Source of the DNA: Cymodocea nodosa
Lineage: Eukaryota > Streptophyta > Magnoliopsida > Alismatales > Cymodoceaceae
Assembly: GCA_036874045.1 (NCBI GenBank)
Contig: CM072335.1
Location: forward strand, 11,862,001 to 11,926,000
Direction: 5' to 3'
Length of the DNA stretch: 64,000 nt
Shown here: positions 20,705 through 41,603 of the stretch, in pieces
How positions within the stretch are numbered: the stretch's first letter is position 1
Layout: each line of letters starts with the position of its first letter
Notes under the pieces: generated by a model
Told to the model about the DNA's origin: nothing
Seen by the model: the letters and a program-made list of their open reading frames with translations, nothing else
The model's database searches: none
Position numbers and translations under genes: made by a program

Positions 20705-21414
20705 TGTTTAGAATGAAAAAGTGCATAATATTAACGGTTAAATGATGGTTAATTGCATAATATTTAGCTTATCATATGAGAATTAAGCTATTTTGTTATA
20801 AGTGCACTGTTATATGCTTTAATTAAAGAATCTGCTTAATTTCGGGGTATTAATGTAAATTTAGTGCATTTCTGAACTGTTAAATTACAGGTTGTGAAAT
20901 TCTTAAGTATCCGAATTTTCTGTTATTTCAGACAGTTATGCTTAATGTACCGAAGAGTTATGTTTAAATTACTGAACAGTTATGTTTTAAAAGAATATTT
21001 TATTATTTCCTGAAGTACACGTGTCAAAACCATAATGCATGACTTAAGTGTACTTTCGGTGAGTTATCTCTAACTATCCGAAATTGCAGCTAGGCATCAG
21101 ATAGTTAAGTTTGTAAGTATCTGAAATGCACCTCAGCATCAGATAGTTAAATTTATGCACGTGTTTTATAGTTAAATCAACGAAGTCTGTTGAGTTATTT
21201 GTAACTCCACGGACCATTTATTTTTTGATATGCCACTGTAGCGGTTACAGAAACAAGATATTCGAAGGAAAACCACGATTGCACGTATCACGCAGGAATT
21301 CACTCGTGGAAGGGAGAAGAAATCACCATCGTTGATATGAATGAAGGAAATCCAACCGATCATCTAAGTAGAAGTAGTTACCACTGAAGAAATATAAAAG
21401 AAAAGAAGAAAAAA
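20705..21414 (+). repeat. Partial LTR (U3 part) in plus orientation
   Basis: Starts TGTTTAGAATG directly after the polypurine tract and follows the minus-strand LTR from 26692 downward. It includes a hairpin at 21185-21214 and a TATA-like TATAAAAG at 21393-21400. Similarity stops in the A-rich run at 21411-21414, where the F-box leader begins. R, U5, primer site and all of gag-pol are absent. Confidence 0.85.
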
Positions 21415-21440: not shown

Positions 21441-21501
21441 TCGTAGAGTTATTACATAACTCAACGAGCTTAATCCGTTGAGTTATGACCCAACTCCACG
21501 A
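21441..21501 (+). repeat. Hairpin pair ahead of the F-box unit (plus copy)
   Basis: Two dyads: CGTAGAGTTA with TAACTCAACG (about 21442-21466) and TCCGTTGAGTTA with a partner ending CTCCACGA (21474-21501). They lie 69-129 bp before the F-box start, at the same place as 29654-29715 in the minus copy. Confidence 0.8.
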
Positions 21502-21569: not shown

Positions 21570-22706
21570 ATGGAATTGATGAAATTACTGCAAGACGCAC
21601 TAAGGGAAGTACTGAGTAACTTGTCAGCTAAATATCTGTGCAGATTGTGCTGTGTATCAAAGGAAATTAAAGATTGTGTTAGAGAAAAATATTTTCAGGG
21701 ACTACAAGCTGCAAAAATGACTAAGATTAGAGATGGATTCATATGAAAGTCATTTAATCGTAGTTCAATTAGCCATGAATATCTGAATATGGAAGAAACT
21801 ACTAGAATTCCACCCAATACATTAGAAGGAATAGATTATATTATGGGGATGGATGAAGGATTAATTATATATAGAACCAAACCAAGGTATGCAATTCTAT
21901 TACCTAATATTTTAATTAAAAATCCTTTCACAAGAGAAGAATGGAATATAGGAAGGCCTAATAGATATGAAGTACTAATTGAAAATTATGGGTTAGCTTT
22001 AATATTTTCTGATAAAAATTTGACCATTCCTAAAAAATTATATTATTGGAGACCTACAGGAAATTGGGGTGAAGATTTATGCTTGAGTGTGTATAATTTT
22101 CTAAATAGATCTTGGACTGAAAACACTATGATATATCTAGGACAGAAATCATTAATTAACAGCATGCATGTCATACTTGATGGATATATATATCTAGTCA
22201 CAGATATATCAATTGCATTTAGATCTGATTTATATGTAGTAAGCATAGACAGTTATGATGATTTTAGAGAAATATTACCTATACCAAGTGATATAGCTAA
22301 ACCACCATCTGCAGAATTTGATAAAATTCAAATAGGGATGTGGTATAATGAATATGATAATCCTACTTTATGTTTGATAAGATGGTGGGATGAGTTGATG
22401 AAATTTCAAATATGGATCATGAAAGACATAAATGAATGGAAGTGGGAAGAGGAATATATTGAAATAGATGTAGAAATAGAAATTGCTACATTATCCTGGA
22501 ACCGAAAAAGATCCCTTTCTACATTTCATTTCATTAATGGTAATACACTTGTATTTAGCATTAATAATATATTGCAAGTTTACAAATTAAGAAGGAACAC
22601 AAACTGCATTAAAACAGAATTAATAGCAAGAAGAATTATGCCTAAAAAGTTTGCTTGGACTGGCACGTTTATTCCATTTGTTTTTACTTTTCAATCATGT
22701 TCTTAA
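21570..22706 (+). pseudogene. Retroelement-borne F-box protein, one premature stop
   Basis: One frame of 379 codons from ATG 21570 to TAA 22704-22706, interrupted only by TGA at 21744-21746, where the other two copies have TGG. Residues 4-45 read as an F-box (LREVLSNLSAKYLCRLCCVSKEI), the motif that binds SKP1/ASK in SCF ubiquitin ligases. The remaining 330 residues resemble an F-box-associated region: an NPFTREEWNIGRP block (compare NPxTREW of FBA proteins), LYYWRPTGNWGEDL, and beta-strand-like segments. It starts about 155 bp after the LTR fragment and is followed by the element's own 3' region, so it is part of the retroelement, not a host locus. Function is inferred only from the F-box. 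A target cannot be predicted. Confidence 0.75.
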
Positions 22707-23195: not shown

Positions 23196-24515
23196 TAATT
23201 AAAGTAACAGCCATGTAAGTTTGTTAATTAAAGGAATTAAAATGGTACTGAAAAGTTTGTAGAAATTGAAATTTTTTTATGAACTTGCTGTAACTATCCG
23301 ATAATTGAGACTGTAAAATTTTTATAAACTATAATTGCTTGAATGTTATATTTAGAAGGCTATATAAGATGCTATAGAATTTACTATTTATGCAAATCTT
23401 GATATAGTATCTTATGTTTTTTTTTTGAATTTCATGAGTTTAACAGTTTCACTATTTTAAAATGAAATTAGAATGCTTAATGAAAAATCAGTAAATTATC
23501 TGAAGTCCTGAAAGAGCTAAGATGTGAATTCTAGATTAAATGAAACACATATGATTAAAGATACATTTAATTTGACTGATTAAACTTGTAGAATGATTTA
23601 TGTGTAGATCTTATTAAACTATAGAAAAGGTATGAGCTTATTGTTATGGATTCATATTTCTAGTAAATGATAGAAGCAGGACTATATGAGATTGGTGTTT
23701 TATTGCATCTGTATTAATGAAATACGTACATATACAGTATGTGATTAATGTTTTTTTTTTTTTTAAAAAAGAAAAAAAAAATAACTTTGAGAGTTTATTG
23801 ACTAGTTTGATCACAAGCCTTTTGTACTTGAGCAGATAGGTATGTAAGGATTGTTGACCTAAAAAAGGACTCTTGAAATCTGACAACCTAAGATCCTGAT
23901 CAGATCTGGGATTGTTGACTGAAAGCTCGTTACATGGGTACATTAGAAAGCTCTTATATGATTCAAGCTTGTCAAATTAACTTTTAAAGTACAAAAATAC
24001 ATATACTGTTTTGAAAAGATACAAGTGTTTTGTGAAATACAGATATCTTTTGAATCGAGTATATTTTCTGTTATCTAGAATTGCTGAAATATGAATCTAA
24101 GAATTGACCTTTGAAGTTGTTTAATGGAGATACAATTCTTTATTCTACTTGTCTTAATCATATTGAATTGGATTGTACTTTGATTCATATGTTGTTGAAA
24201 TTTCTTCTAGAAATCATATTGGAAAATTCAGGATGACAAATGATGAAAAGAAGAACAAACGATAATTTAATTAACACCTATGTGATGATGATATACTTTG
24301 TATGTAATTTGCATATATTCTAAGTATATTTGCAGGTTGAAGAGGAGAAAACAATGTTAAAATAGATTACTGAAACTTACAGAATATCTATATAATAATA
24401 CAAGTTCTTATGCTGAATATAAGAAAAAAGAAAGAATTAATTCTAGCACTTTTAGAAAGACCAATTAATTAGATCTTAGTTTGCTAAGAGACTAGCAAAA
24501 TTTAGGTACGGGGAG
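23196..24515 (+). repeat. Inter-polypurine 3' segment, copy L2
   Basis: Second plus-strand copy of the 1.3-kb segment, closely similar to 19386-20704. It ends in a polypurine tract (GGTACGGGGAG, 24505-24515) followed by only six bases of LTR (TGTTTA) before the inverted F-box fragment. Confidence 0.85.
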
Positions 24516-24521
24516 TGTTTA

Positions 24522-24839
24522 AAATATCAGGTAATAGAATTGTATACCTTGGTTTGGTTCTGTATATAATTAATCCTTCATCCATCCCCATAATATAATC
24601 TATTCCTTCTAATGTATTGTGTGGAATTCCAGTAGTTTCTTCCATATTCAGATATTCATGGCTAATTGAACTACGATTAAATGACTTCCATATGAATCCA
24701 TCTCTAATCTTAGTCATTTTTGCAGCTTGTAGTCCTTGAAAATATTTTTCTCTAACATAGCCTTTAATTTCCTTTGATACACAACACAATCTACACAGAT
24801 CTTTAGCTGACAAGTTACTCAGTACTTCCCTTAGTGCGT
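24522..24839 (-). pseudogene. Inverted F-box gene fragment
   Basis: Minus-strand reading gives the F-box (LREVLSNLSAKDLCRLCCVS) and the block up to LLPDIL, corresponding to about 21597-21915 of the plus copy. The TGG lost in the plus copy is intact here (GFIWKSF). Its upper end abuts the 3' LTR end at 24840 and its lower end meets the six-base LTR start, with TTTAAA shared at the joint, as in microhomology joining or template switching. Confidence 0.8.
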
Positions 24840-25113
24840 TGTTCGTGTTTTCCCAGCACCACACTAGAAAAACTTGGATTTGTTACTTCTATTTTTACTT
24901 AGTTAATTTATCTTTATGCCTATTCTTTCTTTTAGAAGTAAACAAACAACCTTTAATACAATTTAGATATTAATTCCAATTTGTACTTTAACTGCAAGTG
25001 CATAGTGTCTATTGTATCAGTGTGCAAGTACAGGTCGATCCCACAGGGAATTGCTGACGAATTTAAGAAATGTTTGATTGTGAACAATTCAAATTTATAT
25101 TCAATAAGCACTC

Positions 25114-25205
25114 CGTTGAGTTATAGTTAACTCAACGCACTAAGTTCGTTGAGTTATGGATAACTCAACGGACTATCCTCGTAGACTTAAGTTAACTCCA
25201 CGAGC
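25114..25205 (-). repeat. Hairpin cluster in 3' LTR (U5 side)
   Basis: Three dyads: CGTTGAGTTA/TAACTCAACG at 25114-25137 (loop 4) and 25147-25170 (loop 4), and a CTCGT-GA/TC-ACGAG dyad at 25178-25204. Confidence 0.9.
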
Positions 25206-26212
25206 CTGTCTCTTCTTTATAATACTACTAATTACAGAGGAATTCGGCCAACCATTGGGCGATTCCACAGATTATAAATAACATCAATTAAGCTTTTTAA
25301 TGCTAGTTAACATTGGATTTATCATTATGCAATACTAACATTCAGATGATTCAAACAGTAACCATTAAAATCTTTAAGTTGTTTTGTATGAACCAATTTC
25401 AGTAAACTGTAAAATTAAAACTAACATAAAACAATCATAAAATTGATACAGATAACATTAATCACGATACAACACCAACAATACAACACTCAAATACAAC
25501 ATACAAACAAAGATAAATTGTTTTTGGTATTTTTGTTTTGATGTGATGGGCGAAAGGTGAAATGTAAAGTAATTTCACTTGACAGTAAATACTTCCGACA
25601 CTACTTACAACGCGATTACACCACTTAAAATTGAACCACTTACAATTCTGTCTCCTCTCCCTATAGAATCGTGAGTCTAGAATTGCAAGATGATCTCCTC
25701 TTCAGCATACAGGCATCAACTCGAAGCGAATGCTAAAAACTTTACGATCTCCTGAAATATGAGTTGGCGCTTGGTGAAAATGTCTTCCCTTCCCGCGATG
25801 CGATCACTCGTCACAGTGGTTGTCAGACACTGTGTTTGGCTCGGAATCGACTCGACATCAGGCAAGTATCCTCACAGACCTCTGATGATTGGTGATTATG
25901 GTGGTGATACGATGGTTGGTGTGATACTTCAGAGAATCACCGATATTGTCTATAGAAAGCTCGGTGCTCCTCCTCTGTATACACTAGCCGTCCATCGATC
26001 ACACACTTTCTTTTTTTCTTCTTTTCTTTTATATTTCTTCAGTGGTAACTGCTTCTGCTTGAATGGTCGGTTGGATTTCCTTCCTTCAGATCAACGGCGA
26101 TGATTTCTTTCTCCCTACGCAATTGAATTCCTACGTGATATGTGCAAACGTGGTTTTTCCTTTCAACTGTCTGTTCCTGCAACCGCTACAGTGGCATATT
26201 AGAAAATATATA

Positions 26213-26242
26213 GTCCGTGGAGTTACAGATAACTCAACGGAC
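26213..26242 (-). repeat. Hairpin in 3' LTR (U3)
   Basis: GTCCGTGGAGTTA with TAACTCAACGGAC, one mismatch in 13-base arms, loop 4; about 180 bp upstream of the TATA-like box in LTR orientation. Confidence 0.85.
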
Positions 26243-26692
26243 TTCCTTCGTTGATTTAACTATAAAACACGTGCAAAAATAACAACTTAAGTTTATAACG
26301 CTAACCTAACGCGTTGCCTTAGTGTATTTTCATGTAACTCAACGCGTGCAGTTATACTAACTTAACAAGTTATAACGTAAGTAAATCTACCAGTTCTCAA
26401 CACGTGTCAACAGTAGTTTAAACATAAAATAACATTTCAGAGAGTTACAGGTATAACTATCCGATGCTCAGATGCATTTTCGGTTACTTAAGAATTTCAC
26501 AGCCTACAATTTACCGACAGTTCATAAATGTACTAAATTAACATTAATTCCCCAAAATTAAGTAGTTTCTTCAATTAAAGCATATAACAGTGCAATTATA
26601 ACATAATAGCTTAATTCTCATATGATAAGCTAAATATTATGCAATTAACCATCATTTAACCATTAATAATATGTACTTTTTCATTCTAAACA

Positions 26693-28024
26693 CTTCCCCC
26701 ATACCTAAATTTTGCTAGTCCCTTAGTAAACTAAGATTTAATTAATTAGTCTTTCAAAAAGTGCTAGAATTAATTCTCCCCCTTTTGTTTTTTTTTTTTT
26801 TATGTTTAGCATAAACATATATTCTGTATGTTTCAGTAATCAACCTGCAAAGATATTTAGAATATATGTAAATTACATACAAAGTATATCATCTTCATAT
26901 AGGTGTTAATTATATTATCGTTTGTTCTTCTTTTCATCATCTGTAATCCTGAATTTTCCAATAAGTTTTTCCAGAAGAAATTTCAACAACATACAAATTA
27001 AAGTACAATCCAATTCAATCTGATTAAGACAAGTAGAATAAAGAATTGTATTTCCATTAAACAACTTCAAAAGTCAATTCCAGATTCATATTTCAGCAAT
27101 TCTAGATAACAGAAAATATACTCGATTCATAAGATATCTGTATTTCACAAAACACTTGTATCTTTTCAGAACAGTATATGTTTTTTTTCTTTTCTTTTTT
27201 TTTTGTACTTTAAAAGTTAATTTGACAAGCTTGAATCATGCAAGAGCTTTCTAATGTACCCATGTAACAAGCTTTCAGTCAACAATCCCAGATCTGATCA
27301 AGATCTTAGGTTGCCAGATTTTCAGAGTCCTTTTTCAGGTCAACAATCCTTACATACCTATCTGCTCAAGTACAAAAGGCTCGTGATCAAACAAGTCAAT
27401 AAACTCTCAAGGTTTTTTTTTTTTCTAAAAATAAATGCACACACAAAACAAAGCATTAATCACATATTGTATATGCACGTATTTCATTAATACAGATGCA
27501 GTAAAACACCAATCTCATATAATCCTGCTTCTATCATTTACTAAAGATATGAATCCATAATAATAAGTTCATACTTTATATGTAGTTTAATAAGATCTAC
27601 ACATAAATCATTCTACAAGTTCAATTAGTTAAAGTAAATGTATCTTTCATCATATGTGTTTCATTTAATCTAGAATTCACATCTCAGCTCCTTCAGGACT
27701 TCAGATAATTTTCTGATTAAGCATTAAATATTCTGATTTCATTTTAAAATTGTGAAACTGTTAAACTCATGAAATTCAGAAAAATCATAAGATACTATAG
27801 CATCTTCTATAATAATTTATTTATCTAGATTTACATAAATAATAAATTCTATAGCATCTTCTATAGCCTTCTAAATATAACATTCAAGCAGTTTATAAAA
27901 ATTTTATAGTCTCAATTATCGAATAGTTACAGCAAGTTTATAAAAATTTTCAATTTCCTCAAAACTTTGCAGTATCATTTTAATTCCTTTAATTAACAAA
28001 CTTACATGGCTATTACTTTAATTA
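26693..28024 (-). repeat. Inter-polypurine 3' segment, copy A
   Basis: Third copy of the 1.3-kb segment. The 3' polypurine tract GGTATGGGGGAAG is at 26705-26693. It has diverged more than L1 and L2, with small insertions near 27800-27860. No sense-strand ORF. Confidence 0.85.
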
Positions 28025-28037
28025 CCTCCCCCCCATA
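28025..28037 (-). other. Internal polypurine tract of element A
   Basis: TATGGGGGGGAGG on the minus strand, followed by TAATTAAAG, exactly as at 23181-23195. Confidence 0.7.
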
Positions 28038-28447
28038 TCTACATTTTGCATTATCCTCAATGTAAAAGATTTGACAATAAGTACAGTAATTGTAGCGGGC
28101 ATGAATAAAGTTTTGTTTGATTTAAAATTTAGGATAAGTAATTGGTTACATACCTTGTTCCATTTGTATCTCTTTTTGCATATTTCGATTTTTGATTCTA
28201 AAAAACTTTTCATTCCCAGATAAACACAGAATATAAAACAAAATAACATTTAACAGGTATTAATAAATCAGTGTCTTGTGTGGAACCCAGACTTCTATGC
28301 CTTTGGTGGCTCACACGCAAGCCAGTTGGTTTCCCAGAACAGATACCAACAAACTGGATTGATATTTTGTTTTGTTTGTTTGTTTTTTTTTTTTAAAAAA
28401 AAAAAATAAATGCAGAATACACAACATTAAACACACAAAATCACAGC
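28038..28447 (-). other. F-box 3' flank in element A
   Basis: Reverse complement of 22707-23180: T/A-rich tract at 28370-28410 and the conserved CAAACTGGATTGATATTTTG stretch. No coding potential. Confidence 0.7.
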
Positions 28448-29585
28448 TTAAGAACATGATTGAAAAGTAGAAACAAATGGAATAAATGTATCAGTCCAAG
28501 CAAACTTTTTAGGCATAGTTCTTCTTGTTATTAATTCTGTTTTAATGTAGTTCTTGGTCCTTTTTAATTTGTAAACATGCAATATATTATAAATTCCAAA
28601 TACGAGTGTATTACCATTAAAGATATGTAATGCAGAAAGGGATCCTTTTTGGTTCCAGGGTAATTTAGCAGTTTCTATTTCTACATCTATTTCAATATAC
28701 TCCTCTTCCCACTTCCATTCATTCATGTCTTCCATAATCCATATTTGAAATTTCATCAGTTCATCCCATCATCTTATCAGACATAAAGTAGGATCATCTT
28801 TTTCATTATACCACATTCCTATTTGAATTTTATTAAATTTTTCAAATGATGGTTTAGCTATTTCACTCGGTACAGGTAAAATTTCTGTATAATCATCATA
28901 ACTGTCTATGCTCACTATGTATAAATCAGATCTATATGCTATTGATATCTCCGTGACTAAATAAATATAACCATCAAGTATGACATGTGTTTGGTTAATT
29001 AATGATTTCTGTCCTAGATATATTATAATGTTTTCATTCCAAGATCTGTTCAAAAAATTATACACTTAAGCGTAAATCTTCACCCCAATTTCCTGTAGGT
29101 CTCCAATAATATAATTTTTCAGGAATTGCAGAATTTTTATCAGAAAATATTAAAGCTGACCCACAATTTTCAGTTGATGCTTCAAATATATTAGGTCTTC
29201 CTATATTACATTCTTCTCTTGTTATAGGATTTCTTATTAAAATCTCAGGTAATGATAAACTTGCATACCTTGATCTCATCTTGTATATGATTAATCCTTC
29301 ATCTATCCCCATAATATGACTCATTCCTTCTAATGCATTGGGTGGAGTTCCAGTAGTTTCTTCCATAGCCAGATATTCATGGGTATTTGAACTACGATTA
29401 AATGACCTCCATATGAATCCATCTCTAATCTTAGTCATTTTTGCAGCTTGTAGTCCCTGAAAATATTTTTCTTCAATACAGTCTTTAATTTCCTTTGATA
29501 CACAACACATCCTGCACAGATCTTTAGCTGACAAGTTACTTAGTATTTCCCTTTGTGCATCCAACGGTAATTGCATTAATTTCAT
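28448..29585 (-). pseudogene. Retroelement-borne F-box protein, frameshift and stop
   Basis: Start ATG 29585 gives an F-box beginning MKLMQLPLDAQREILSNL, then SAKDLCRMCCVSKEI. The C-terminal region aligns along its length with the plus copy. Two lesions: a 2-bp loss near 29060 (at SVYNFL in the plus copy), and TGA at 28771-28769 where the plus copy has TGG. The lesions differ from the single lesion of the plus copy, so the common source had an open frame of about 378 aa. It lies between the gag core unit and the internal polypurine tract. Confidence 0.78.
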
Positions 29586-29653
29586 TTGTCAATTCTGTAG
29601 AATAAAAACAAAAATTTAGCAGAGACAAAAATTAACATAACTACTGCACACCC

Positions 29654-29715
29654 TCGTGGAGTTAAGGCATAACTCAACAGACTAAGTTCCTTGAGTTAAA
29701 AATTAACTCTACGAT
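29654..29715 (-). repeat. Hairpin cluster ahead of the F-box unit
   Basis: Dyads CTCGTGGAGTTA/TAACTCAACAG (29654-29681) and CCTTGAGTTAA/TTAACTCTACGA (29689-29715), 70-130 bp upstream of the F-box start on the minus strand. A TATA-like run (TATATATG) lies just upstream at about 29743-29750. Confidence 0.8.
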
Positions 29716-29780
29716 ACTATTAACTTAAAATAAAAATAAAAACATATATACATACAAATAGTTGCTTCAGATATGCTGCT

Positions 29781-31124
29781 TCATTCAGCTGCCCTCCCAG
29801 AAGAGGTATCAATTTCATTAACCATTCTATTGACATGATTAGGTATAGCTTGTATTGGCAATCCTCCAGTAGGTCTAACTTTCATTGGTTCCTTCTGTCT
29901 AAGTGGTATATTTCTATTCTGATTTTGATTTACAGCATTTCCAAATATAAATTCTAAACGATTGTTTACTTGTTGGATTATCTTTTCTAATTTTTCTATT
30001 CTAGCTCCTTGTTCAATTAATACTTCATAACTTATGTTCTTCTCATTTATATTTTCTCCTCCCTGGAAATTGTTGTTTCTCCAAGATAAATTCGGGTGAT
30101 TTCTCCAATTAGGATTATAAGAATTTCCCAAGTTATCTCTCTAGTTTCTAGCATAAATAATATCTAAGTCATTTATGTTTGTATTCTTTTCTGCTAGCTT
30201 TTGATTTAATGATAACTCTTCTATTTTCTTTGTTAATTCATTTAATTTCACCTCAAGCATAGTATTGGAATCTATTTCATGCATTCCTCTTGGCAATAAT
30301 CTTTTATCTACAATAGCTTCAGCCGAATTTTCCCACTGTGTAGTTCTTTTTGAAAAATTTTCTAAATATGCCCATGCTTCTTCACTACATAATTTTAAAA
30401 ATCCATTTTGACAAGTAGATTCTAATAAAGATTTCGTTGAAACATCTATGCCTTCATAAATTATGCCTATTAATTGTGCTTTACTCATTGCATGATGTGG
30501 ACATTGAGTCATTAAATCTTTAAATCTTTCAAAATATTTCCAGAATGATTCAACCTGTTTTTGGCTACACATTAATATTTCTTTCTTCTTTTTAATCGTT
30601 TGATGTGTTGGATAGTATTTTTCCAGAAAAATAGAGCAAAATTCAGTCCATGTAGAAATTGAATCAGGCGATAGAGTATATAACCATCTCTTAGCTGTAT
30701 CTTTTAAAGCAAAAGGGATATATCTAAGTTTAATAGCATCCATACTCATGTTCGACATTCTCATCATTTGACAAACTTCGTTAAATTCTCTAAGGAAATA
30801 ATAGGCATCCTCTCTTTCTAATCCATGAAAATGTGGCAATTGACTAATATAATTAGATTTCAGTTCAAACCTATCTCCCTCAAAGTTTGGCAATCGAATA
30901 CATGAAGGTTCATCAATTAATTCAGGATACAGAATCTCTCCTAATGGTTTTTCTACTGGAGCAGCCATCTCTACGTTCTCTTTTAAAGAAAGGTTAGCTA
31001 CACCCCAAAGAATTTCGTTAAAGTTTAGTTCAGAAAATTTTTCAGTACCCCACTGCAATGAAAATTCCTGGATAGGTGTTCTTACTAATCGTTTAGTGCT
31101 TAGAGAACGAGTCCATGTGCTCAT
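29781..31124 (-). pseudogene. Gag core (retrotransposon gag domain), one in-frame UAG
   Basis: One frame of 448 codons from ATG 31124 to the stop at 29781, with a single TAG at 30143-30141. Residues about 95-290 are the retrotransposon gag (capsid-like) domain: FLREFNEVCQMM, IKLRYIPFALKDTAKRWLY, TWTEFCSIFLEKYYP, FERFKDLMTQCPHH and TTQWENS. After the TAG comes YNPNWRNHPNLSWRNNN, the block that in Athila-type Gag sits after the zinc knuckle, then a coiled coil (EVLIEQGARIEKLEKIIQQV). No CCHC motif is here; it is in the separate unit at 39688. Gag normally precedes pol; here it lies downstream of integrase and ORF-X and has its own upstream hairpin cluster. Confidence 0.82.
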
Positions 31125-31477
31125 AAATAAATAACAGAAGATTAATTACATACCAGTCTGAAGCTTTCCATTCTATAAATATTTGTTGTCGGATGAAGGT
31201 TGAATCAGCTGCTTCTCCTTCCAGTTCCTCCAACGCTTTCTCCTTTCTCTTAAAAGTGCTGGTAACTCGTAAATAACATTCTGTTTCATATATATACTAC
31301 GCATCCATAAAGTGAATAAATCTCGTTGCAAGAACGTGTCTTGCAACGTGCATCGTGGTTCCTATTTTAATGGGTACGTGTACCACTACTAATTTCAAAT
31401 TTTGGTAACCGCTAAACCGACGAAGTTTCATTTGTGGTTAAAAGAATAACCGTTCTGCTTAATCCATGAACTAACCT

Positions 31478-31640
31478 CGTTGAGTTACAGATTACTCAAC
31501 AGAACACAGTCGGTTACTATTGCAAACTCTACGGACTAACTTCGTTGAGTTACAGATAACTCAACGGAGTGACCTTATATTATATTACTGACCTCGTGGA
31601 GTTGCAGTTAACTCAACGGAATTACTTCGTTGAGTTAACA
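31478..31640 (-). repeat. Hairpin cluster ahead of the gag unit
   Basis: Three dyads of the family (31478-31502, 31541-31567, 31593-31620) plus a half-site at 31626-31639, 350-515 bp upstream of the gag start. A TATA-like TATAAAAA lies just upstream at about 31695-31688 on the minus strand. Confidence 0.8.
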
Positions 31641-32064
31641 CTTGGCAACTTCTAAGTTTCACTCTCGTAAGTTTTCTATTCTGTTTTTTTTATATTTTTC
31701 TTTGTCATTCTGCTAACTGTAATAAAGTTAAATCTATGTCATTAATGCCTTATTTTGATTAAAATACATTTAAATCTGAACATTATATAAAGATTTAAAT
31801 TGCAGGTCATTTTATGTTATGTAGAATTTACATTTTACCTTATAACATGCAGAAATTTTTGAGCAGTTATCCTGTCATTCAGCAAATTGTAAATCTGTTA
31901 CATATTCATAAAGTTCCACAAATTACATAATATTCAATAAATTCTATTCATTTCACATTCAAATAAGTATGAAAATTGCATCTAAAAAATTATATTCAAT
32001 AATATGAATCAATTACATTACAAGTACATCATACAATTTTACACAAGTAGACGAACAATACAAT

Positions 32065-34299
32065 TTAATCTCTATGCCTAAGTTCATCTACTTCCTTTTG
32101 GAGTTTTTCTAATTGCTGCTCTAATTGATTTATCCTCTCTACTGCTCCTGCAATTTCTCCAGAAGGTATAGCTAATTCTGCAGCTACAAAATTTCTGTAT
32201 TCTTTCATTGAAATGGTTCTAGATCTTATCCTTTTTGATGTCCATTTAGTGAAATCAATACTATCCACCATCAGTAGTGGAATCAAATCTCCATAAAATA
32301 ATTTCTTCTTTATTGTTTTCAGCTTGGAGATAAAAACTGCAGACCAATTTATTTGGATCTTATTTACAACTGCATACGTGGCCCATTTGACAAATTGACT
32401 TAATTCTATGTCATGGCCCTGTCGTTGATAGACATTCTTAATCAGAATGTTAGCTACCATGCGTGCTTTACCATTTAAATGCTTCAATCTGTTTAATAAT
32501 GGCACACCAGGATTGATAGCTAAACAATCCTTAATTTGCTGCTCAGTCCATTCAACTACAGTTGTATCCTCCAAAATTTTTGTTCCTTCATTCTTTAAAC
32601 CAAATATGTTGTGGAGAAGCTCTGGTGTTATCTGTACATCAGCTTCCTCCACGTTTGAAATTAATTCTCCTTCTCCTTCTCTTAAATTTGCATAGAAACA
32701 AGGCACTAAATTCTCATATACTGCATGCCCTCTATCTTGAGATATAAATTGCAGTAGACCTTGGAATTCAAATAGATCTTTGATTTCTTGCATTCCATCC
32801 CAATTTACTGGTCTACTGTAAATAATATCGTAACCCCTTATTTCTTGGTATTTGATATAAGCTTCCTAACTACAAAAATGTGCTTCATTCAAAATTGTTG
32901 TTTCAGTCGAGTCAAGAAGGTGACTTTGTTGCTCTAAAGGGGTTTACTCTTACTCTTCCTCTAGCATAGGCTGCATTTGGACATTCTCTTCAGATTCTTG
33001 AATTTTTACTTTTGTTTCTGTCTGTGGTGGTGAGCCGGCAGAACTCTCCACTCTGTCTTGAATTCTTTCCATAATTTGCTGAAGAGTTTCTTGCTCTTTA
33101 GTGGAATCTGTGAAATTATTTTTGTCCAAATGGCTTCTTTCAGCCTCTTCATTTTCTACTCTTTCTTCTTCCTCCTGACTACCAATCTGTTCTGTTACTG
33201 TTCTTTCTAATTTTGTAACAAATTGGGATGGAGTCACGGGCAATTCAATTTCTACCCTAATTTCTGTTTCTTCTTGTACAGGCTGCAAACTAATTTCAAC
33301 CTGATTTTTTTCTTTTCTTTGCTCCTCCTGCTCCTCCTCAGATTCGGATAGCAGGTTAATAAAAATCTGCTCCACAGGCCCTGTAAAAATTGGTACTTCA
33401 GATTTAATTTATTTATAATCAGGCACTTTTTCTTTTTCTTTTTCTTTCTTTTTTCTGATTAGTTGTGCCTGTTCTTCCTCTTCATCTTCTGAAATTAAAT
33501 CTACAAAAATAGGCTCTGCAGGCTTTCGAACCATAGGTACTAGCTCTTCCTGTTTAATTCTTCCAATAATTGCTGGTCTCGAAGGACCAGCTTCAGCTTC
33601 TTTTACAGCATCTCTAACAGTAGTTCTGGCAGTAGCTTCTTGATGTTGTTCCACTTTAATTTTATATTGGGCTTTCAACTTTTCTACAGCCCTCTTTTTG
33701 TACAATGCATCAAACACCAGATGTGCTTTAGCCACTGCCAAATCTTCTGATTCTCCTTGGTTTTTTCCAACTTGAACCAGTTCTGCAAATTCTCTTATTT
33801 CTTCTTCAGTCGAAGGCCCCATCATTTCTACTCGTGTCAATGGCTTAAATGGTGGAACTGAAGGTCCAGACTGTTGTTCCTCAAGAACAGGTCTTTCAGC
33901 AGTTGGTTCCTCCCGTTCTTCAGTTGCCTCTTCATTTACTTTCCTTTCTTGCTCCCAGATCACCCATTTAGCTTGTCTACAGATTCGTCTTTTGAACCAG
34001 AGTCGGGACTTACGCTAGATTAATTCTAGGGCAACTTCATTACTTGGCCTTATTTGTCTTTCCTTACTTACAGCTATTTCTGTTGCTATTCTGATTCGTG
34101 TTTCCATTATTTGAGGTATTCGTATATCCATATCTACTAAATCTCTTCTCAACTTGAAAAGTTCTGATTCTACCTTTTATAGCTCTTTCTCTCTTTTCGT
34201 ATTTCTGATCTTCTGTTGCGTATGCCACTCTTCTGATTCCTTCAGAAATTCTGATGTATCAACAACATCTTCCCAGAATTCAGGCGTCATCTTCATCAT
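32065..34299 (-). pseudogene. ORF-X: acidic coiled-coil protein with plant-transposon domain
   Basis: A single frame of 745 codons from ATG 34299 to 32065, broken by stops at 34179-34177, 34017-34015, 33411-33409, 32952-32950, 32946-32944 and 32868-32866 but with no frameshift. N-terminus MMKMTPEFWEDV; the middle is highly charged (Glu/Lys) with a duplicated motif, EPIFVDLISEDEEEE and EQIFINLLSESEEEQ. The C-terminal 240 residues (VPCFYANL, VQITPELLHNIFGL, NGKARMVANIL) resemble the putative plant transposon protein domain often found in Athila/Ogre-type elements, as I recall it. It ends in a leucine-heptad coil (INQLEQQLEKLQKEVDEL). Position between integrase and the 3' end recalls env-like ORFs, but I see no signal peptide or membrane segment. 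Function unknown. Confidence 0.65.
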
Positions 34300-34481
34300 C
34301 GTGGAGTTACACAACAGCATGTAATCGCTTTGATTTCTACTGTTCTAGATTCTAAATGATTTGTCGGATAATGCCCCCAAAACCCTAGGTTTTAGTTTAA
34401 ATAAGCACTAAGTTTAGGCAGGTAATCGAGTCATTTCCCGAACCAACTATTACTATTTTATCTGCGGTCTTAGCTACAGTA

Positions 34482-34576
34482 CTCCATTGTGTTACAGGTA
34501 ACTCAACGGAATAAGCTCGTTGACTAACTCAAGACTTAACGGAGTAAGCTCGTTGAGTTAAGCGTAACTCAATGGA
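34482..34576 (-). repeat. Hairpin cluster ahead of ORF-X
   Basis: Dyads at 34482-34510 and 34549-34576 with a degraded one between them, 180-280 bp upstream of the ORF-X start. A TATA-like TTATATAGGG sits at 34588-34579 on the minus strand, immediately upstream. Confidence 0.78.
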
Positions 34577-34665
34577 CTCCCTATATAAGCAAATATAATA
34601 ATAAAAATATTACAGAGAATAGTTTTTCTGTTTTTTTTTTTGTTTTTTTTTTATTTACAGGTTTA

Positions 34666-34819
34666 ACCGATACTATGATTCGGTCGGACCTAAATATTTT
34701 TTTATTTTTTTATCTTTCTTTTGGTTGAACCGATACTATGATTCGGTAAAACAAAATTTTTTTCTGAAAATTAATATACAATTTTTAATGTTCCAGTCAT
34801 ACCGATGTTACACGTCGGT
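34666..34819 (-). repeat. Second hairpin family, ACCGA...TCGGT, three copies
   Basis: ACCGATACTATGATTCGGT at 34666-34684 and again at 34729-34747; ACCGATGTTACACGTCGGT at 34801-34819. Each is a 19-base dyad with 5-base arms and a 9-base loop; (C/G)GGACCTAAATATTTT-type sequence follows two of them. They sit between the pol 3' end and the ORF-X hairpins. A fainter half-site (CGGTTGAACCG) is at 34867-34878. Confidence 0.8.
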
Positions 34820-34965
34820 CAGACCTAAATATTTTTTAATTTTCCGGCCATACTAATGGATCCAATCGGTTGAACCGCAACTATTTTTATGTTTTATATA
34901 TATTTTTAATGTTTTTTTTTATTTTTTATATATATATATATATAAACATAAAAACTGATTTCTTA

Positions 34966-37900
34966 CTAAGTAAAACTCGAGTAGTCCTCTACTCTGATTT
35001 CTTCTATAATTCCAAAGGAGCTTTTTGGTGTTTTCAGAATAGGTTTAAGTATTTGTCCATTTACTTTAAATATATTCTGATTTTTAGGATTTTCAATTTC
35101 AATAGCTCCATAAGGATAAACATTTCGAACTATGTAAGGTCCTGCCCATCTAGATCTTAATTTTCCTGGATGGTTATGGAGTCTAGCCATATAAAGATAT
35201 ACCTCTTGTCCTATTTCAAAGTTTTTAGGAATAATTTTTCTATCATGCCAGAATTTCATTCTCTTTTTCTCTTACAGTTTTTGAATAAGCTTCATTTTTA
35301 AATTCTTCCAATTCAATTAGTTGCATTTTCCTATTTTCATTAGCTTGATTTAAATTAGTATTTAGAGTTTTTAATGCCCATTAAGCTTTATGTTCTATTT
35401 CAACAGGTAAATGACAACTTTTTCCATATACTAGCCTAAAAGGTGACATACCTAAGCTCGTTTTATAAGCAGTTCTATAAGCCCAAAGTGCATCAATCAA
35501 TCTATTAGCCCAATCTGTTCTAGTAGGATTTACTACTTTTTTCAAGATTAATTTAATTTGTTTGTTTGCACTTTCTACTTGTCCACTTGTTTGCGGATGA
35601 TATGATGTTGCAATTTTGTGGTTTACTCCATATTTCTTCATTAAGGCTTCAAAACTTCTATTACAGAAATGAGTTCCTCTATCACTGATAATAGCTTTAG
35701 GTATTCCAAATCTGGCAAATATATTTGTTCTTATAAATTGTATTACCACTTTGTTATCGTTAGTTTTTGTAGGAATAACTTCTATCCATTTAGATATATA
35801 ATCCACTCCCAACAATATGTAATTAAATTGATTAGATATAGGAAATGGACCCATAAAATCTATTCCCTACACATCAAAGATTTCAACCTCAACAATAGGA
35901 TTAAGAGGCATCATATTCCTCTTTGATATTCTTCCTATTTGTTGACATCTTAAACAACTTAAGCAATATTTATGAGCATCTTTGAATAGTGTTGGCCAAT
36001 AAAACCCACATTGCAGAATTTTTGCAGTAGTTTTCCCTAAACCAAAATGTCATCCACAAGCTTGGTCATGACAGAAAGACAATATGCTCGAATATTCAGT
36101 TTCTAGAACACACCTCCTTAAAACTAGATTAGGACATTTCTTAAATAAGTAAGGGTCTTCCCAATAGTAATATTTTACTCTTGAGAAAAACAATTTCTTA
36201 TCCTGTCTATTCCAATCCTTAGGTGTTAAACCAGTAACTAAGTAATTAACTATGTCTGCATACCAAGGTATTGTGTTGATGGTCATTAATTGTTCATCAG
36301 GAAAATTATCCTTAATTTCAATATTTGATTTTTCTATTTGTAATCTTGATAAATGATCTGCTACTACATTCTCACAACCTTTTTTATCTTTAATTTCTAG
36401 ATCGAATTCTTGCAATAATAATATCCATCGGATCAATCTAGGTTTAGTTTCTTTTTTCTTTATTAGATGTTTTAGAGCTGAATGATCTGTGTATACTATT
36501 ATTTTAGCTCTAATCAAATATGATCTAAACTTTTCTAAAGCAAACACAACAGCTAATAATTCTTTTTTAGTAGTTGTGTAATTAACTTGAGCATCATTTA
36601 AGGTTTTGCTTGCATAATGAATCACTCTAGGAGATTTTTCTATTTTCTGTCCTAACACTGCTCCTACAGCAAAATCAGAAGCATCGCACATTAATTCAAA
36701 TGGATGGTTCTAATTAGGTGCTTGAATTATAGGAGTTGAAATTAAGCTAGTCTTAAGTCAAAAAAATGCTTCTTTGCAATTTTTATCAAAGTTAAATGGA
36801 ACATCTTTTAATATATTAGTTAAAGGTCTAGCTATCTTGCTAAAGTCTTTAATAAATCTTCTATAAAAACTAGCATGTCCTAGAAATGATCTAATATCTT
36901 TTATTGATTTAGGTTCTGGTAGATTAGAAATTACTTCTATTTTAGCTTTATCTACTTCCAACCCTTTTTTAGAAACAACATGCCCTAAGACTATTCATTG
37001 TTTAACCATGAAATGACATTTTTCCCAATTTAAAACTAGATTTCTTTCCACACAGTATTTTAATATTTGGTCTAAATTGCTTAAACACACTTCATATGAG
37101 TTGCCATTTATAGTAAAATCATCCATAAATATTTCTAAAAGTTCATCAGTCATTCCAGTAAATATGCCCTGCACACACCTTTGAAAGGTAGCTGGTGCAT
37201 TGCATAATCCGAATGACATTCTTTTAAAAGCATAAGTTCCATTAGGACAAGTGAAAGTTGTTTTCTCTTGATCCTCTAATGCTACTGGAATTTGATTATA
37301 CCTTGAATACCCGTCTAGGAAACAAAAATATTCTTGCCCTGCTAATCTTTCCAGCATTTGATCTATAAAAGGTAAGGGAAAATGATCTTTCCTAGTCACA
37401 GCATTCAGCTTTCTATAGTCTATACATACTCTCCAGCCTGATTGAATTCTAGTAGGTATCAAGTCTTGACTTTCATTCCTAATAACTGTTAATCTTGATT
37501 TATTGGGAACTACATGGATTGGACTAACCCACGAGCTATCAGAAATCGGATATATTATATCATTATCTAACCATTTAACTATTTCCTTCCTGACTACTTC
37601 CTTAAGGTTTGGATTTAATCTCCTCTCAGGAATTCTAACAGGTTTAGTATTCTCTTCTAAATATATGTGGTGACAGCATAAAGTTGAACTTAACCATTTT
37701 ATATCAGTCATAGTCCATCCTATTGCTTCTTTATAACTTTTTATTACCTCTTTTAATTTAGCTATTTGATCCTCTTTCAAATCTGAAGCAATAATGATTG
37801 GACAGGTTCGTTTATCTTCCAGAAATATATAGGTTAATTCAGGAGGTAAAGGTTTTAATTCTAAATGTTGCCCATCAGAAGCTAGAGCTCCTAATTGAAC

Positions 37901-39688
37901 ATCATCATTTTTTAAATTAATTTCTTCCTGATCTCCTTCTATATTTATGCTTTCACTTTCTTCTAAAGTTTCAGAATTGATTTGCCTATTTAATTCTTTT
38001 TGAATCACATCATATAACATATCTCCTTCATCCTCTAAAAAGTCTATGGTATGTAAGGACATTTCTAACTCCTCAAACCTTTCTGGTTTGAAAATATTTA
38101 ATTGATTATCCTCATTACCATATGCTAACTTCATTACTCCAGTTTTACAATTTATAACAGCCCCTGATGTTGCTAAAAAAGGCCTTCCCAAAATTAAAGA
38201 TGTATCACTATTTTTATGCTTAATTTGTTGGGAATCCAAAATTACAATATCAATAGGATATATAAAATTCTTGATTTTAATTAAGACATCCTCTATTTTT
38301 CCTTTAGGGTATCTTATACTTCTATCAGCCAATTGAATAACCGTACTAGTAGGAGTTAAGCCTTCTAATTCTAAGGATGCAAATATATCACTTGGCATAA
38401 CATTTATACCTACACCTAAGTCTATTAAGGTTCTTTCTAGAATGGTATTTCCTATAGTGCATGATATAACAGGGATTCCAAGATCAGATAAGTTTTTAGG
38501 AATTTGTGGCAGAAATGGGTAACTACTTTACTCAGCTAAAAAGACATTTCTAAGAACTTTTCGCTCTCTTTTCTTAGTACACCAATCCTTCAGAAATTTA
38601 GCACAAAGTGGCATATTCTGCAATAGATCTAACAAAGGAATGTTAACTTGTACTTTTTCAAAAATTTCTCTTATTTTTTCTTGTTTTTCAGGAATTGTTT
38701 GTTGTAATCTTTCAGGATAGGGTACTAAAGATTTTGATTTCAAAGACTCTTTTTCTTTCAGTTGATTTGTTTGATCATTTTTAGCTTCAATTGAAGATTC
38801 AGATTGTTCTTCAGTGATTTCTAGATTTTCAGCTATTATGTTTTCATTATCATTTTGATTTTTACTCTTGTCCACCTTCATATCATTTTCATTTTGAGTT
38901 CTTGGTGGTATATCAGTTCCAGATCTTAATGTTACACATACATCTTCTAGATTTTCGTTACTTTCATGATGTTTTTGTATATCATTTTCGTGATTATGAT
39001 CTTCAATTGTTTTTAGTTTTAAAGTGCATTCTTTAAATTCTCTTACATTTGTGTTTTCTGTTTGTTGTATATTTTGCAAGTTGTGCAGGTTTATAACATT
39101 ATAATTTTCATTGTCCTGTTGTAAAACTTGTATTTTCATTGCATTTTTGTCTAATGCTTTTAATTTTGTTTCCAGATCATCTAATTTCATTGCATTCAAT
39201 TTTTGATCAATTTTCTTTATGGCTTTTTCAGTTTCGTAAATTATATCTTGTTTAGGTTCTGAATATGCCTTCTTATAGTTTAATTGGTTGACTTCTTGTT
39301 GTTGACACACAAAGTATTCCAGTTTGTCCAGATTTTGCTCTATACTATGCTCCAATCTGTCATAGCTATCCCAAACTTCAGTGTCTCTCATCATATTACA
39401 CATTCTATACTGACCATCAGTTGGGTAAACTATAGGATTCTCATACTCGGCTCTATTATATTGAGGATAATTCATTTGTTGTTCATGGGATCTATCAATC
39501 TGTAAATGTCTCAATTTCAAACAATCAGAAATGTCGTGTCCTTCAGAATTGCAGAATTCACATATGCTAATTAAAGGTTTCAGAAATCTTTGAGCATAAG
39601 CATATGCCATATTCTCAATTACAGAAGAAAACACACAACTCTGACTATTAAAATGAAACAGCTCTAACAATTGCTTATATCTATTCAA
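34966..39688 (-). pseudogene. CCHC/gag-C and pol polyprotein of the Athila-like element
   Basis: From ATG 39688, 23 bp after the primer site. Order: zinc knuckle CEFCNSEGHDISDC; Athila-type gag tail (VTLRSGTD, VNIPLLDLL); protease with D-L-G (LIDLGVGINVMP, near 38410); reverse transcriptase with catalytic FMDD (near 37120); RNase H with [18 protein letters not shown] and ADHLSRL; integrase with an HxxCxxC-type finger, [15 protein letters not shown] and GQVESAN (DDE); and an integrase tail to 34966. The frame is continuous apart from stops at 38530-38528, 36997-36995, 36760-36758, 36712-36710, 36052-36050, 35869-35867 and 35383-35381, and one frameshift near 35265. At least two stops (36710, 35867) replace conserved Trp codons. 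The gag core domain is missing from this polyprotein. Confidence 0.9.
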
Positions 39689-39710
39689 TTCAGTTCAATT
39701 CAATTCAATT

Positions 39711-39727
39711 CCCTGGCAACGGCGCCA
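39711..39727 (-). other. Primer-binding site, tRNA-Asp type
   Basis: TGGCGCCGTTGCCAGGG on the minus strand, seven bases after the LTR end. It matches the sequence used by Athila/Tat elements and taken to pair with the 3' end of tRNA-Asp. Confidence 0.85.
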
Positions 39728-40006
39728 TAAAACTTGTTCGTGTTTTCCCAGCACTACACTAGAAAAACTTAGATTTGTTACTTCTATTTTTACTTAGTTA
39801 ATTTATCTTTATGCCTATTCTTTCTTTTAGAAGTAAACAAACAACCTTTAATACAATTTAGATCTTAATTCCAATTTGTACTTTAACTGCAAGTGCACAG
39901 TGTCTCTTGTATTAGTGTGCAAGTACAGGTCGATCCCACAGGGAATTGCTGATGAATTTAAGAAATGTTTGATTGTGAACAATTCAAATTTATATTCAAT
40001 AAGCAC

Positions 40007-40099
40007 TCCGTTGAGTTACAGTTAACTCAACGGACTAAGTTCGTTGAGTTATGGATAACTCAACGGACTATTCTCGTGGACTTAAGTTAACTCCACGAG
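40007..40099 (-). repeat. Hairpin cluster in 5' LTR ahead of the pol unit
   Basis: Best-preserved set: TCCGTTGAGTTA/TAACTCAACGGA (40007-40034, perfect 12-base arms, loop 4); GT(T/C)CGTTGAGTTA-type at 40039-40068; CTCGTGGA/TCCACGAG at 40073-40099. They lie about 320-410 bp before the polyprotein ATG, inside the presumed RNA leader. Confidence 0.9.
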
Positions 40100-41100
40100 C
40101 CTGTCTATTCTTTATAATACTGCTAATTACAGAGGAATTCGGCCAACCATTGGGCGATTCCACAGATTGTAAATAACATCAATTAAGCTTTTTAATGTTA
40201 GTTAACATTGGATTTATTGTTATGCAATAGTAACATTCAGATGATTCAAACATTAACCATTAAAATCTTTAAGTTGTTTTGCATGAACCAATTTCAGTAA
40301 ACTGTAAAATTAAAACTAACATAAAACAATCATAAAATTGATACAGATAACATTAATCACAATACAACACCAACAATACAACACTCAAATACAACATACA
40401 AACAAAGATAAATTACTTTTGGTATTTTTGTTTTGATGTGATGGGCGAAAGGTGAAATGTAAAGTAATTTCACTTGACAGTAAATACTTCTGACACTACT
40501 TGCAACGTGATTACACCACTGAAAATTGAACCACTTACAATTCTGTCTCCTCTCCCTATAGAATCGCGAGTCCAGAATTGCAAGATGATCTCCTCTTCAG
40601 CATACAGGCATCAACCCGAAGCCAAGGCTAAAAGCTTTACGATCTCCTAAAATATGAGTCGGTGCTTGGTGAAAATGTCTTCCCTTCCCACGACGCGATC
40701 ACTCGTCACAGTGGTTGTCAGGCACTGTGTTTGGCTCGGAATTGACCCGACATCAGGCAAGTATCCTCACAGACCTCCGATGATTGGTGATTATGGTGGT
40801 GATACGATGGTTGGTGTGATACTTTGGAGAATCGCCAATATTGTCTGCAGAAAGCTCGGTGCTCCTCCTCTATATACACTGGTCGTCTATCGATCACACA
40901 CCCTTCTTCTTTTCTTTTATATTTCTTTTGTAGTAACTGCTTCTGCTTGAATGGTCAGTTGGATTTCCTTCCTTCAGATCAACGGCGATGATTTCTTTCT
41001 CCCTACGCGATTGAATTCCTGCATGATACGTGCAAACGTGGTTTTTCCTTCCAACTGTCTGTTTCTACAACCACTACAGTGGCATATTAGAAAATATATA

Positions 41101-41130
41101 GTCCGTGGAGTTACAGATAACTCAACGGAC
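41101..41130 (-). repeat. Hairpin in 5' LTR (U3)
   Basis: GTCCGTGGAGTTA with TAACTCAACGGAC, the same as at 26213-26242. Confidence 0.85.
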
Positions 41131-41603
41131 TTCCTTCGTTGATTTAACTATAAAACACGTGCAAAAATAACAACTTAAGTTTATAACGCTAACCTAACGC
41201 GTTGCCTTAGTGTATTTTCATGTAACTCAACGCGTGCAGTTATACTAACTTAACAAGTTATAATGTAAGTAAATCTACTAGCTCTCAACACGTGTCAGAA
41301 GCAGTTTAAATATAAAATAACATTCCGGAGAGTTACAGGTATAACTATCCGATGCTCAGATGCATTTTTGGATACTTAAGAATTTCACAGCCTACAATTT
41401 ACCGACAGTTCAGAAATGCACTAAATTAACATTAATTCCCCAAAATTAAGTAGATTCTTCAATTAAAGCATATAACAGTGCAATTATAACAAAATAGCTT
41501 AATTCTCATATGATAAGCTAAATATTATGCAATTAACCATCATTTAACTATTAATATTATGCACTTTTTCATTCTAAACATGCATCATAATAATTAAAGT
41601 CAC

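What the first reader, a model, noticed from the sequence alone, without database searches (positions are those of the whole stretch)
24840..41580. The same hairpin cluster stands before each of four coding units of one retrotransposon
Seen: dyads built on CGTTGAGTTA / TAACTCAACG occur in clusters at 40007-40099 (before CCHC-pol), 34482-34576 (before ORF-X), 31478-31640 (before gag) and 29654-29715 (before the F-box unit), besides U3 copies at 41101-41130 and 26213-26242. I noticed none inside the ORFs. The plus-strand partial copy keeps the F-box cluster (21441-21501). A TATA-like run lies just upstream of the three internal clusters, though AT-rich DNA makes that weak. Inference: the hairpins are a shared 5'-leader element (initiation, packaging or translation signal), so the family would make several transcripts instead of one genomic RNA. 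I know of no LTR retrotransposon described with this repeated-leader layout.
Basis: partly seen in the sequence, partly recalled or inferred. Interest (0 to 1): 0.87.

Follow-up and report, generated by a model that had tools for sequence, protein, structure and literature searches.

The report
Retrotransposon with repeated paired control sites
An abundant plant retrotransposon carries arrays of one short mirror-image DNA motif in its ends and before its internal genes, most likely protein-binding control sites rather than RNA hairpins, and its genomic copies also record spliced RNAs.

Summary
The clusters are real: 38 half-sites in the window against 2.9 expected, none in a predicted ORF. The exact dyad occurs 12,386 times genome-wide, reversed control 0; 30 of 30 loci looked at, all from the start of one contig, lie in this Ty3/gypsy-order family or diverged kin. 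Corrections: the 'before CCHC-pol' cluster lies inside the LTR and has a 3'-LTR twin; the F-box cluster is intronic (two copies lack exactly that GTATGT...CTACAG intron) and the 'TATA' beside it is the 5' splice site. RNA pairing is not conserved: G at arm position 4 sits on one arm in 7,032 dyads and on both in 273, below the ~998 expected for independent arms. Arms outlast flanks in two diverged gag leaders. In U3 and the gag leader the nearest dyad mostly ends 182 and 181 bp before a TATA-like box. Best reading: 33-bp tandem units of DNA-level binding sites (promoter-proximal or anti-silencing), plus alternative splicing from a donor just upstream of gag (107 genome matches of one spliced junction). 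Sireviruses are the nearest precedent. No RNA data; the binding protein is unknown.

The parts
39734..41580 (-). 5' LTR (element reads on the minus strand), TG...CA ends
   Evidence: Self-BLAST: 95.1% to 24839-26692; flanks TGCAT / TGCGT read.
24839..26692 (-). 3' LTR
41104..41127 (.). U3 dyad; one-arm position-4 mismatch; ends 182 bp upstream of the LTR TATA
   Evidence: 3'-LTR twin 26216-26239.
40914..40921 (-). LTR TATAAAAG
   Evidence: Aligned in the window's 5' LTR, plus-strand copy, L038, L047 and L060, not in L037; also 3' LTR and L033.
40009..40097 (.).
   Evidence: twin at 25114-25202.
35381..39688 (-). CCHC zinc knuckle, RT, RNase H and integrase region, in pieces broken by stops (no protease family was matched)
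   Evidence: Pfam RVT_1, RT_RNaseH, rve; CCHC and LRSG read in the translation.
34485..34574 (.). Three-unit dyad cluster upstream of ORF-X
34396..34403 (-). TATTTAAA, 81 bp downstream of the last X dyad (candidate TATA, inference)
32065..34299 (-). ORF-X region (broken; start by eye); one piece matches PF20167 below the curated cut-off
   Evidence: E 2.1e-6, 28.2 bits against a cut-off of 45.
31478..31637 (.). Multi-unit dyad cluster upstream of gag
   Evidence: retained in diverged relatives L051 and L052.
31288..31296 (-). TATATATAT, 181 bp downstream of the nearest gag dyad (candidate internal promoter, inference)
31148..31153 (-). 5' splice site GTATGT between the gag leader and the gag ATG
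   Evidence: Precise junction in L009, L010, L011 and L056; 107 genome matches of the junction to F-box.
30141..31124 (-). gag capsid ORF, downstream of pol and X
   Evidence: PF03732 E 2.4e-20; homologue P0001 (named by its source as Tasmannia lanceolata) carries PF03732 and PF13650 (an aspartic protease, recalled) in one protein.
29595..29755 (-). 161-nt intron GTATGT...CTACAG between gag and F-box, containing the F-box dyad cluster
   Evidence: Missing precisely from L025 and L040.
29655..29713 (.). Two-unit dyad cluster before F-box (intronic)
29058..29585 (-). F-box ORF piece
   Evidence: PF00646 E 3.1e-10.
28198..28205 (-). 3' splice site TTTTTTAG used from the gag-leader donor in L056
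21188..21500 (+). Plus-strand derivative: LTR U3 dyad and TATAAAAG joined to the F-box intron cluster, followed by F-box sequence

Best explanation
The clusters are arrays of DNA-level protein-binding sites. Each 33-bp unit carries two half-sites CGTTGAGTTA/CGTGGAGTTA facing each other across 3-5 bp. The family keeps such arrays in the LTR and in the noncoding DNA before its separately placed coding units (X, gag, F-box), so that one factor (a host transcription factor, or a protein of the element such as X) can act on the LTR and on internal promoters, or keep the noncoding DNA from being silenced, in the manner of foamy-virus Tas or VANDAL VANC. Shown: repetition, noncoding placement, family-wide occurrence, lack of arm covariation, and arm conservation above flank in the two most diverged gag leaders. 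Inferred: protein binding, internal promoters before gag and X. A second, independent layer is shown by intron-loss copies: RNA of the element is spliced from a donor just upstream of gag to the F-box or further downstream, and across the gag/F-box gap, so F-box can be reached by splicing instead of its own leader.
For: Window enrichment. 12,386 exact dyads in 374.6 Mb, control 0; 30 of 30 loci looked at are in the family or diverged kin (10, 20). No compensatory signal: real arm pairings are no better than shuffled pairings (133 of 150 cells against 131.9, fraction 0.31); genome counts TT 12,386, one arm G 7,032, both G 273. The one-arm mismatch of the U3 dyad recurs in L047, L060 and L037; L047 and L060 align to this LTR region at about 66-69%. 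Diverged gag leaders: arms 83% and 93% identical against flanks 59% and 77% (L051, L052). Nearest dyad to TATA-like box: LTR 182 bp in 12 of 20 matches, gag 181 bp in 23 of 26, X 81 bp in 12 of 13. Splicing.
Against: No RNA 5' ends, no binding data, no identified protein. The F-box cluster has no TATA and is intronic. Copies share descent, so conservation partly reflects common origin. In three closer relatives (L049, L062, L056) arms are not clearly better conserved than flanks, and in L051 the loops (11 of 12) match as well as the arms (58 of 70). LTR distances vary in 8 of 20 matches (165-251 bp); the hand-made TATA pattern for gag found no match in 8 of the 20 fetched copies nor in L051, and several matches are overlapping loci of one element. 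The R/U5 cluster lies downstream of the LTR TATA. The TATA-like boxes were picked by eye in 32%-GC DNA. In the 252-dyad sample same-letter changes on both arms number 25 against 16.6 expected, a slight excess.
Confidence: 0.6

Rival explanations
1. RNA hairpins in 5' leaders that act in translation, packaging or RNA export.
For: Single strands fold better than shuffles (z -2.1 to -8.0 in seven stretches); loops are 3-5 nt. Slight excess of same-letter double changes in the 252-dyad sample (25 against 16.6).
Against: Any DNA dyad folds as RNA. No covariation in the 15-dyad or genome counts. The F-box cluster is removed as an intron and U3 copies lie upstream of the LTR TATA, outside the expected 5' part of the transcript.
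Confidence: 0.12
2. The dyads are splicing regulators or mark introns of one long polycistronic RNA; expression of X, gag and F-box is by splicing alone.
For: Precise splice junctions in L009-L011, L025, L040, L056; the F-box cluster sits in an intron; no internal promoter has been shown.
Against: U3 copies and the R/U5 cluster lie outside the splice intervals seen; among the copies fetched no precise GT-AG loss spans the gag or X cluster, and no GT-AG junction from the 5' leader was seen (none was searched for genome-wide).
Confidence: 0.17
3. A neutral minisatellite that spread between noncoding spacers by template switching or gene conversion.
For: 33-bp tandem organisation; LTR and X clusters align over 93 bp at 77%; unit number varies, with extra units in L052.
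Against: Arms exceed flanks in the two most diverged gag leaders; the motif is confined to noncoding DNA in the window; the same asymmetric U3 dyad is kept in diverged LTRs.
Confidence: 0.11

Closest known systems
Sirevirus (Ty1/copia) repeated motifs, PMC2829016 (passages read)
   Same: Short dyad-symmetric boxes in many copies, clustered in the LTR upstream of a TATA box and again upstream of the env-like gene; an internal promoter for env was discussed there; extra PPT copies.
   Different: Sireviruses are Ty1/copia; 12 of the 13 listed motifs have a CGG-CCG core; sites are LTR and env. Here the element has Ty3/gypsy domain order, core GTTGAGTTA, and clusters in the LTR (two) and before X, gag and F-box; the boxes are 33-bp tandem units and one cluster is intronic.
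VANDAL/VANC targets in Arabidopsis, PMC5735166 (passages read)
   Same: Short DNA motif in tandem repeats in introns, upstream and terminal noncoding regions of one transposon family; repeats vary between relatives.
   Different: VANDAL is a DNA transposon (recalled); its motif (YAGTATTAY for VANC21) and binding protein are known; no binder is known here.
Foamy virus LTR plus internal promoter under Tas, PMC4929722 and PMC8670036 (starts of abstracts in a search listing)
   Same: One retroelement with LTR and internal promoter; one activator serves both.
   Different: Animal retrovirus with gag-pol-env order (recalled); activator binding is reported there.
Spliced env-class plant elements: Bagy2, and predicted acceptors in Athila (passages of PMC7264820 and PMC2829016)
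   Same: Downstream ORF reached by splicing.
   Different: Here the donor lies just upstream of a gag that itself stands after pol, and the spliced gene is an F-box ORF.
Retand elements, PMC11963269 (part 1 of 5 read)
   Same: Non-chromovirus Ty3/gypsy, long region after pol, extra ORFs, tandem repeats.
   Different: Retand extra ORFs are antisense to gag and pol and lie between pol and the 3' LTR; here X, gag and F-box are in sense.

Membership tests
Ty3/gypsy LTR retrotransposon | RT, RNase H, integrase in that order between LTRs | tested here: met
   RVT_1, RT_RNaseH, rve in this order on the minus strand; LTR pair.
Athila-like lineage | RT falls in the Athila clade | not tested
   No reference RT set was used; likeness rests on recalled motifs (LRSG, NWRNHPN) seen.
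Athila-like lineage | gag precedes pol | tested here: not met
   gag lies after pol and X in the window; pol sequence lies upstream of the gag leader in L012, L017, L020, L021, L022; 7 of 7 other 5' loci continue from the LTR into the CCHC-pol sequence.
Sirevirus | Ty1/copia domain order (integrase before RT; recalled) | tested here: not met
   Integrase follows RT.
Sirevirus repeated motif | CGG-CCG core | tested here: not met
   Core is GTTGAGTTA.
Sirevirus repeated motif | Dyad boxes in the LTR upstream of TATA and before an extra gene | tested here: met
   this likens, it does not make it a Sirevirus.
Foamy-type internal promoter | Transcription starts inside the element under a self-encoded activator | not testable with these tools
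   No RNA or binding data.
VANC-type anti-silencing target | Motif bound by a protein of the element | not testable with these tools
   No binding data; pieces of X and F-box found no homologue.
Structured RNA leader | Compensatory changes in paired arms | tested here: not met
   a slight excess in the redundant 252-dyad sample.

The most novel reading that the evidence does not exclude
A retrotransposon organised as a small regulon: separate promoters for CCHC-pol, X and gag/F-box, all under one dyad-binding factor, possibly the element's own X protein, with gag after pol and F-box made by splicing over gag.
Probability: 0.3. Interest if true: 0.85.

Novelty: new variant of a known kind. Interest (0 to 1): 0.62.

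Why it matters
How retrotransposons make more Gag than Pol is usually explained by frameshifting, stop suppression or splicing of one RNA (recalled). A family with gag moved behind pol needs another route. Its repeated binding-site arrays and recorded splice junctions make both routes, internal promoters and splicing, directly testable. A self-regulating dyad system would extend the idea of element-encoded activators or anti-silencing proteins to plant Ty3/gypsy elements.

Tried and rejected
Rejected: (a) clusters as relics of internal LTRs: at the BLAST cut-off used, apart from the cluster itself (34478-34570 against 40002-40093) the internal leaders do not align with the LTR. (b) RNA stems under selection. 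(c) A host-wide motif: 30 of 30 dyad loci are in the family or diverged kin. These are not a random draw: the first ten places of the list (four of them, L040-L043, in one element) and 20 later places picked in list order with five listed places skipped, all within the first 5.1 Mb of one contig. (d) The TATA runs right beside the X and F-box clusters. (e) The X-deletion junction of L017 and L020 (34466|32114; seen again in the block borders of L040-L043) and the junctions shown for L012, L021, L022, L024 as splicing: no GT-AG borders. Led nowhere: viral contigs (5 and 11 pattern hits but no relative; none); homologue searches with F-box and X pieces (none). Never answered: genome counts of unspliced acceptors and of the 161-nt intron loss, and a search for relatives of the plus-strand copy. 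In one search I left out the gag units that do not form a recognisable dyad and unpaired half-sites. An earlier count gave splice positions a few bases off; the report's positions were re-read.
Full report
OBSERVATION. CGTTGAGTTA with at most one mismatch occurs 38 times in the window; 2.92 are expected and 0 of 100 shuffles reach 38. All 38 lie between 21,057 and 41,232; the other 41.7 kb hold none. The pol, gag and F-box stretches hold none, and the one hit near X ends directly upstream of its candidate ATG. A looser dyad scan finds 25 dyads in the window, 24 of them in the element region, against 0 to 4 in each of 20 first-order random windows. The repeat is a 33-34-bp unit: arm, 3-5-nt loop, arm, a linker close to ARCTTASTC.

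ANATOMY. The element reads on the minus strand. LTRs are 24839-26692 and 39734-41580, 95.1% identical, with near-matching 5-bp flanks TGCGT and TGCAT. The order is LTR, a tRNA-primer-like site TGGCGCCGTTGCC (recalled as such), CCHC with RT, RNase H and integrase, X (a piece matching PF20167 below its cut-off), gag (PF03732), F-box (PF00646), LTR. gag therefore stands after pol. This is not a peculiarity of one copy: pol sequence lies upstream of the gag leader in L012, L017, L020, L021 and L022, and 7 of 7 other 5' loci run from the LTR straight into the CCHC-pol sequence.

FAMILY. Of 20 copies fetched by the gag leader (20 of the 40 scored hits), 16 have the X-leader segment and 15 the F-box-leader segment (at least half the segment; cross-matches to other clusters not counted). 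The exact dyad GTTGAGTTA-N4-TAACTCAAC occurs 12,386 times in 374.6 Mb; the reversed control occurs 0 times. Thirty dyad loci from that list (10, 20; chosen in list order near the start of one contig, five listed places skipped, four of the thirty in one element) match this family or diverged kin in 30 of 30 cases: by my reading 19 in the LTR, 6 in the gag leader, 4 in the X leader and one (L064) near a tail-like segment of a distant relative. The F-box dyads are not perfect and so do not answer to this pattern.

RNA OR DNA. If RNA stems were kept, a change on one arm should be matched on the other. Fifteen dyads from the window and its aligned copies pair no better than with arms re-dealt (133 of 150 cells against 131.9; 31% of shuffles do as well). 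Genome-wide at arm position 4, both arms T: 12,386; one arm G: 3,475 + 3,557; both G: 273. Independent arms would give about 998 (7032 squared over 4 x 12386), so paired double changes are scarce, not favoured. Copies are related, so these numbers are not independent events; in the redundant 252-dyad sample same-letter double changes are 25 against 16.6 expected, and one-arm changes 251. The one-arm mismatch of the U3 dyad is seen again in distant LTRs. The predicted RNA folds (z -2.1 to -8.0) follow from the DNA symmetry.

CONSERVATION AND PLACE. In the two most diverged gag leaders, arms are 83% and 93% identical to the window while flanks are 59% and 77% (L051, L052); in three closer ones there is no clear difference, and in L051 the few loop positions (11 of 12) match as well as the arms. 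The nearest upstream dyad ends 182 bp from the LTR TATAAAAG in 12 of 20 matches (others 165 to 251), 181 bp from the gag TATATATAT in 23 of 26, and 81 bp from TATTTAAA before X in 12 of 13. Several matches come from overlapping loci, the gag pattern missed 8 of the 20 fetched copies and L051, most copies are recent, and the boxes were chosen by eye, so this is supportive only.

SPLICING. Three precise GT-AG losses are recorded in genomic copies. (i) Donor GTATGT at 31153 to acceptor CTACAG ending at 29595, removing gag and the F-box cluster: L009, L010, L011; the junction pattern occurs 107 times genome-wide (49 + 58), control 0, of which these three were read in full. (ii) Donor GTATGT at 29755 to the same acceptor, removing the 161 nt that hold the F-box cluster: L025 and L040. 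(iii) Donor 31153 to TTTTTTAG ending at 28198, removing gag and F-box: L056. Loss with exact splice borders is best read as reverse transcription of spliced RNA. Whether members of a class are independent events or one amplified lineage was not tested. Thus the family does make several RNAs, but the F-box cluster is not a leader of a mature F-box message made this way.

MECHANISM. Most likely the arrays are protein-binding sites acting as DNA, near promoters of the LTR, gag and X, or as targets that keep noncoding DNA unsilenced. Steps shown: repetition, placement, spread, lack of covariation, splicing. Steps inferred: binding, internal starts, the identity of the factor.

KNOWN SYSTEMS. Sireviruses have palindromic repeated motifs in the LTR upstream of TATA and upstream of env, with an internal promoter suggested (PMC2829016, passages). 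VANC proteins bind short motifs in tandem repeats in introns, upstream and terminal regions (PMC5735166, passages). Foamy viruses use one activator for LTR and internal promoter (PMC4929722, PMC8670036, starts of abstracts in a listing). In the listings of the searches (titles and starts of abstracts only, open library only) I saw no paper on gag after pol or an F-box gene in a plant LTR element. Novelty: a new variant of a known kind.

Noticed in passing
window 29058-39688: Gene order LTR, CCHC-pol, X, gag, F-box: gag stands after pol, seen in other genomic copies too.
   Followed up: partly
window 28020-28045 and 26695-26712: Two similar polypurine-tract-like stretches; the 3' part between them is duplicated in the plus-strand derivative (19386-20714 and 23196-24525, 96.4% identical).
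   Followed up: partly
L017, L020, L024, L040-L043: Shortened derivatives: L017 and L020 lack X but keep pol sequence and the X and gag clusters; L024 and L040-L043 (the latter one element) lack pol and X but keep LTR and gag clusters. One X-deletion junction (34466|32114) recurs in L017, L020 and L040-L043.
   Followed up: partly
window 28153: Strong donor-like CAAG|GTATGTAACC after the F-box ORF, at the end of the short exon joined in L056; further introns in the 3' region are likely.
   Followed up: no
window 24519-24838: Inverted F-box fragment abutting the 3' LTR, 96% identical to 21595-21915 of the plus-strand copy.
   Followed up: no
window 54547-56264 and 62277-63992: Inverted pair of 1.7-kb stretches, 74.7% identical, outside the element.
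   Followed up: no
window 8229-8632 and 57549-57965: Two tandem duplications of about 200 bp (99.5% and 95.7% identical).
   Followed up: no
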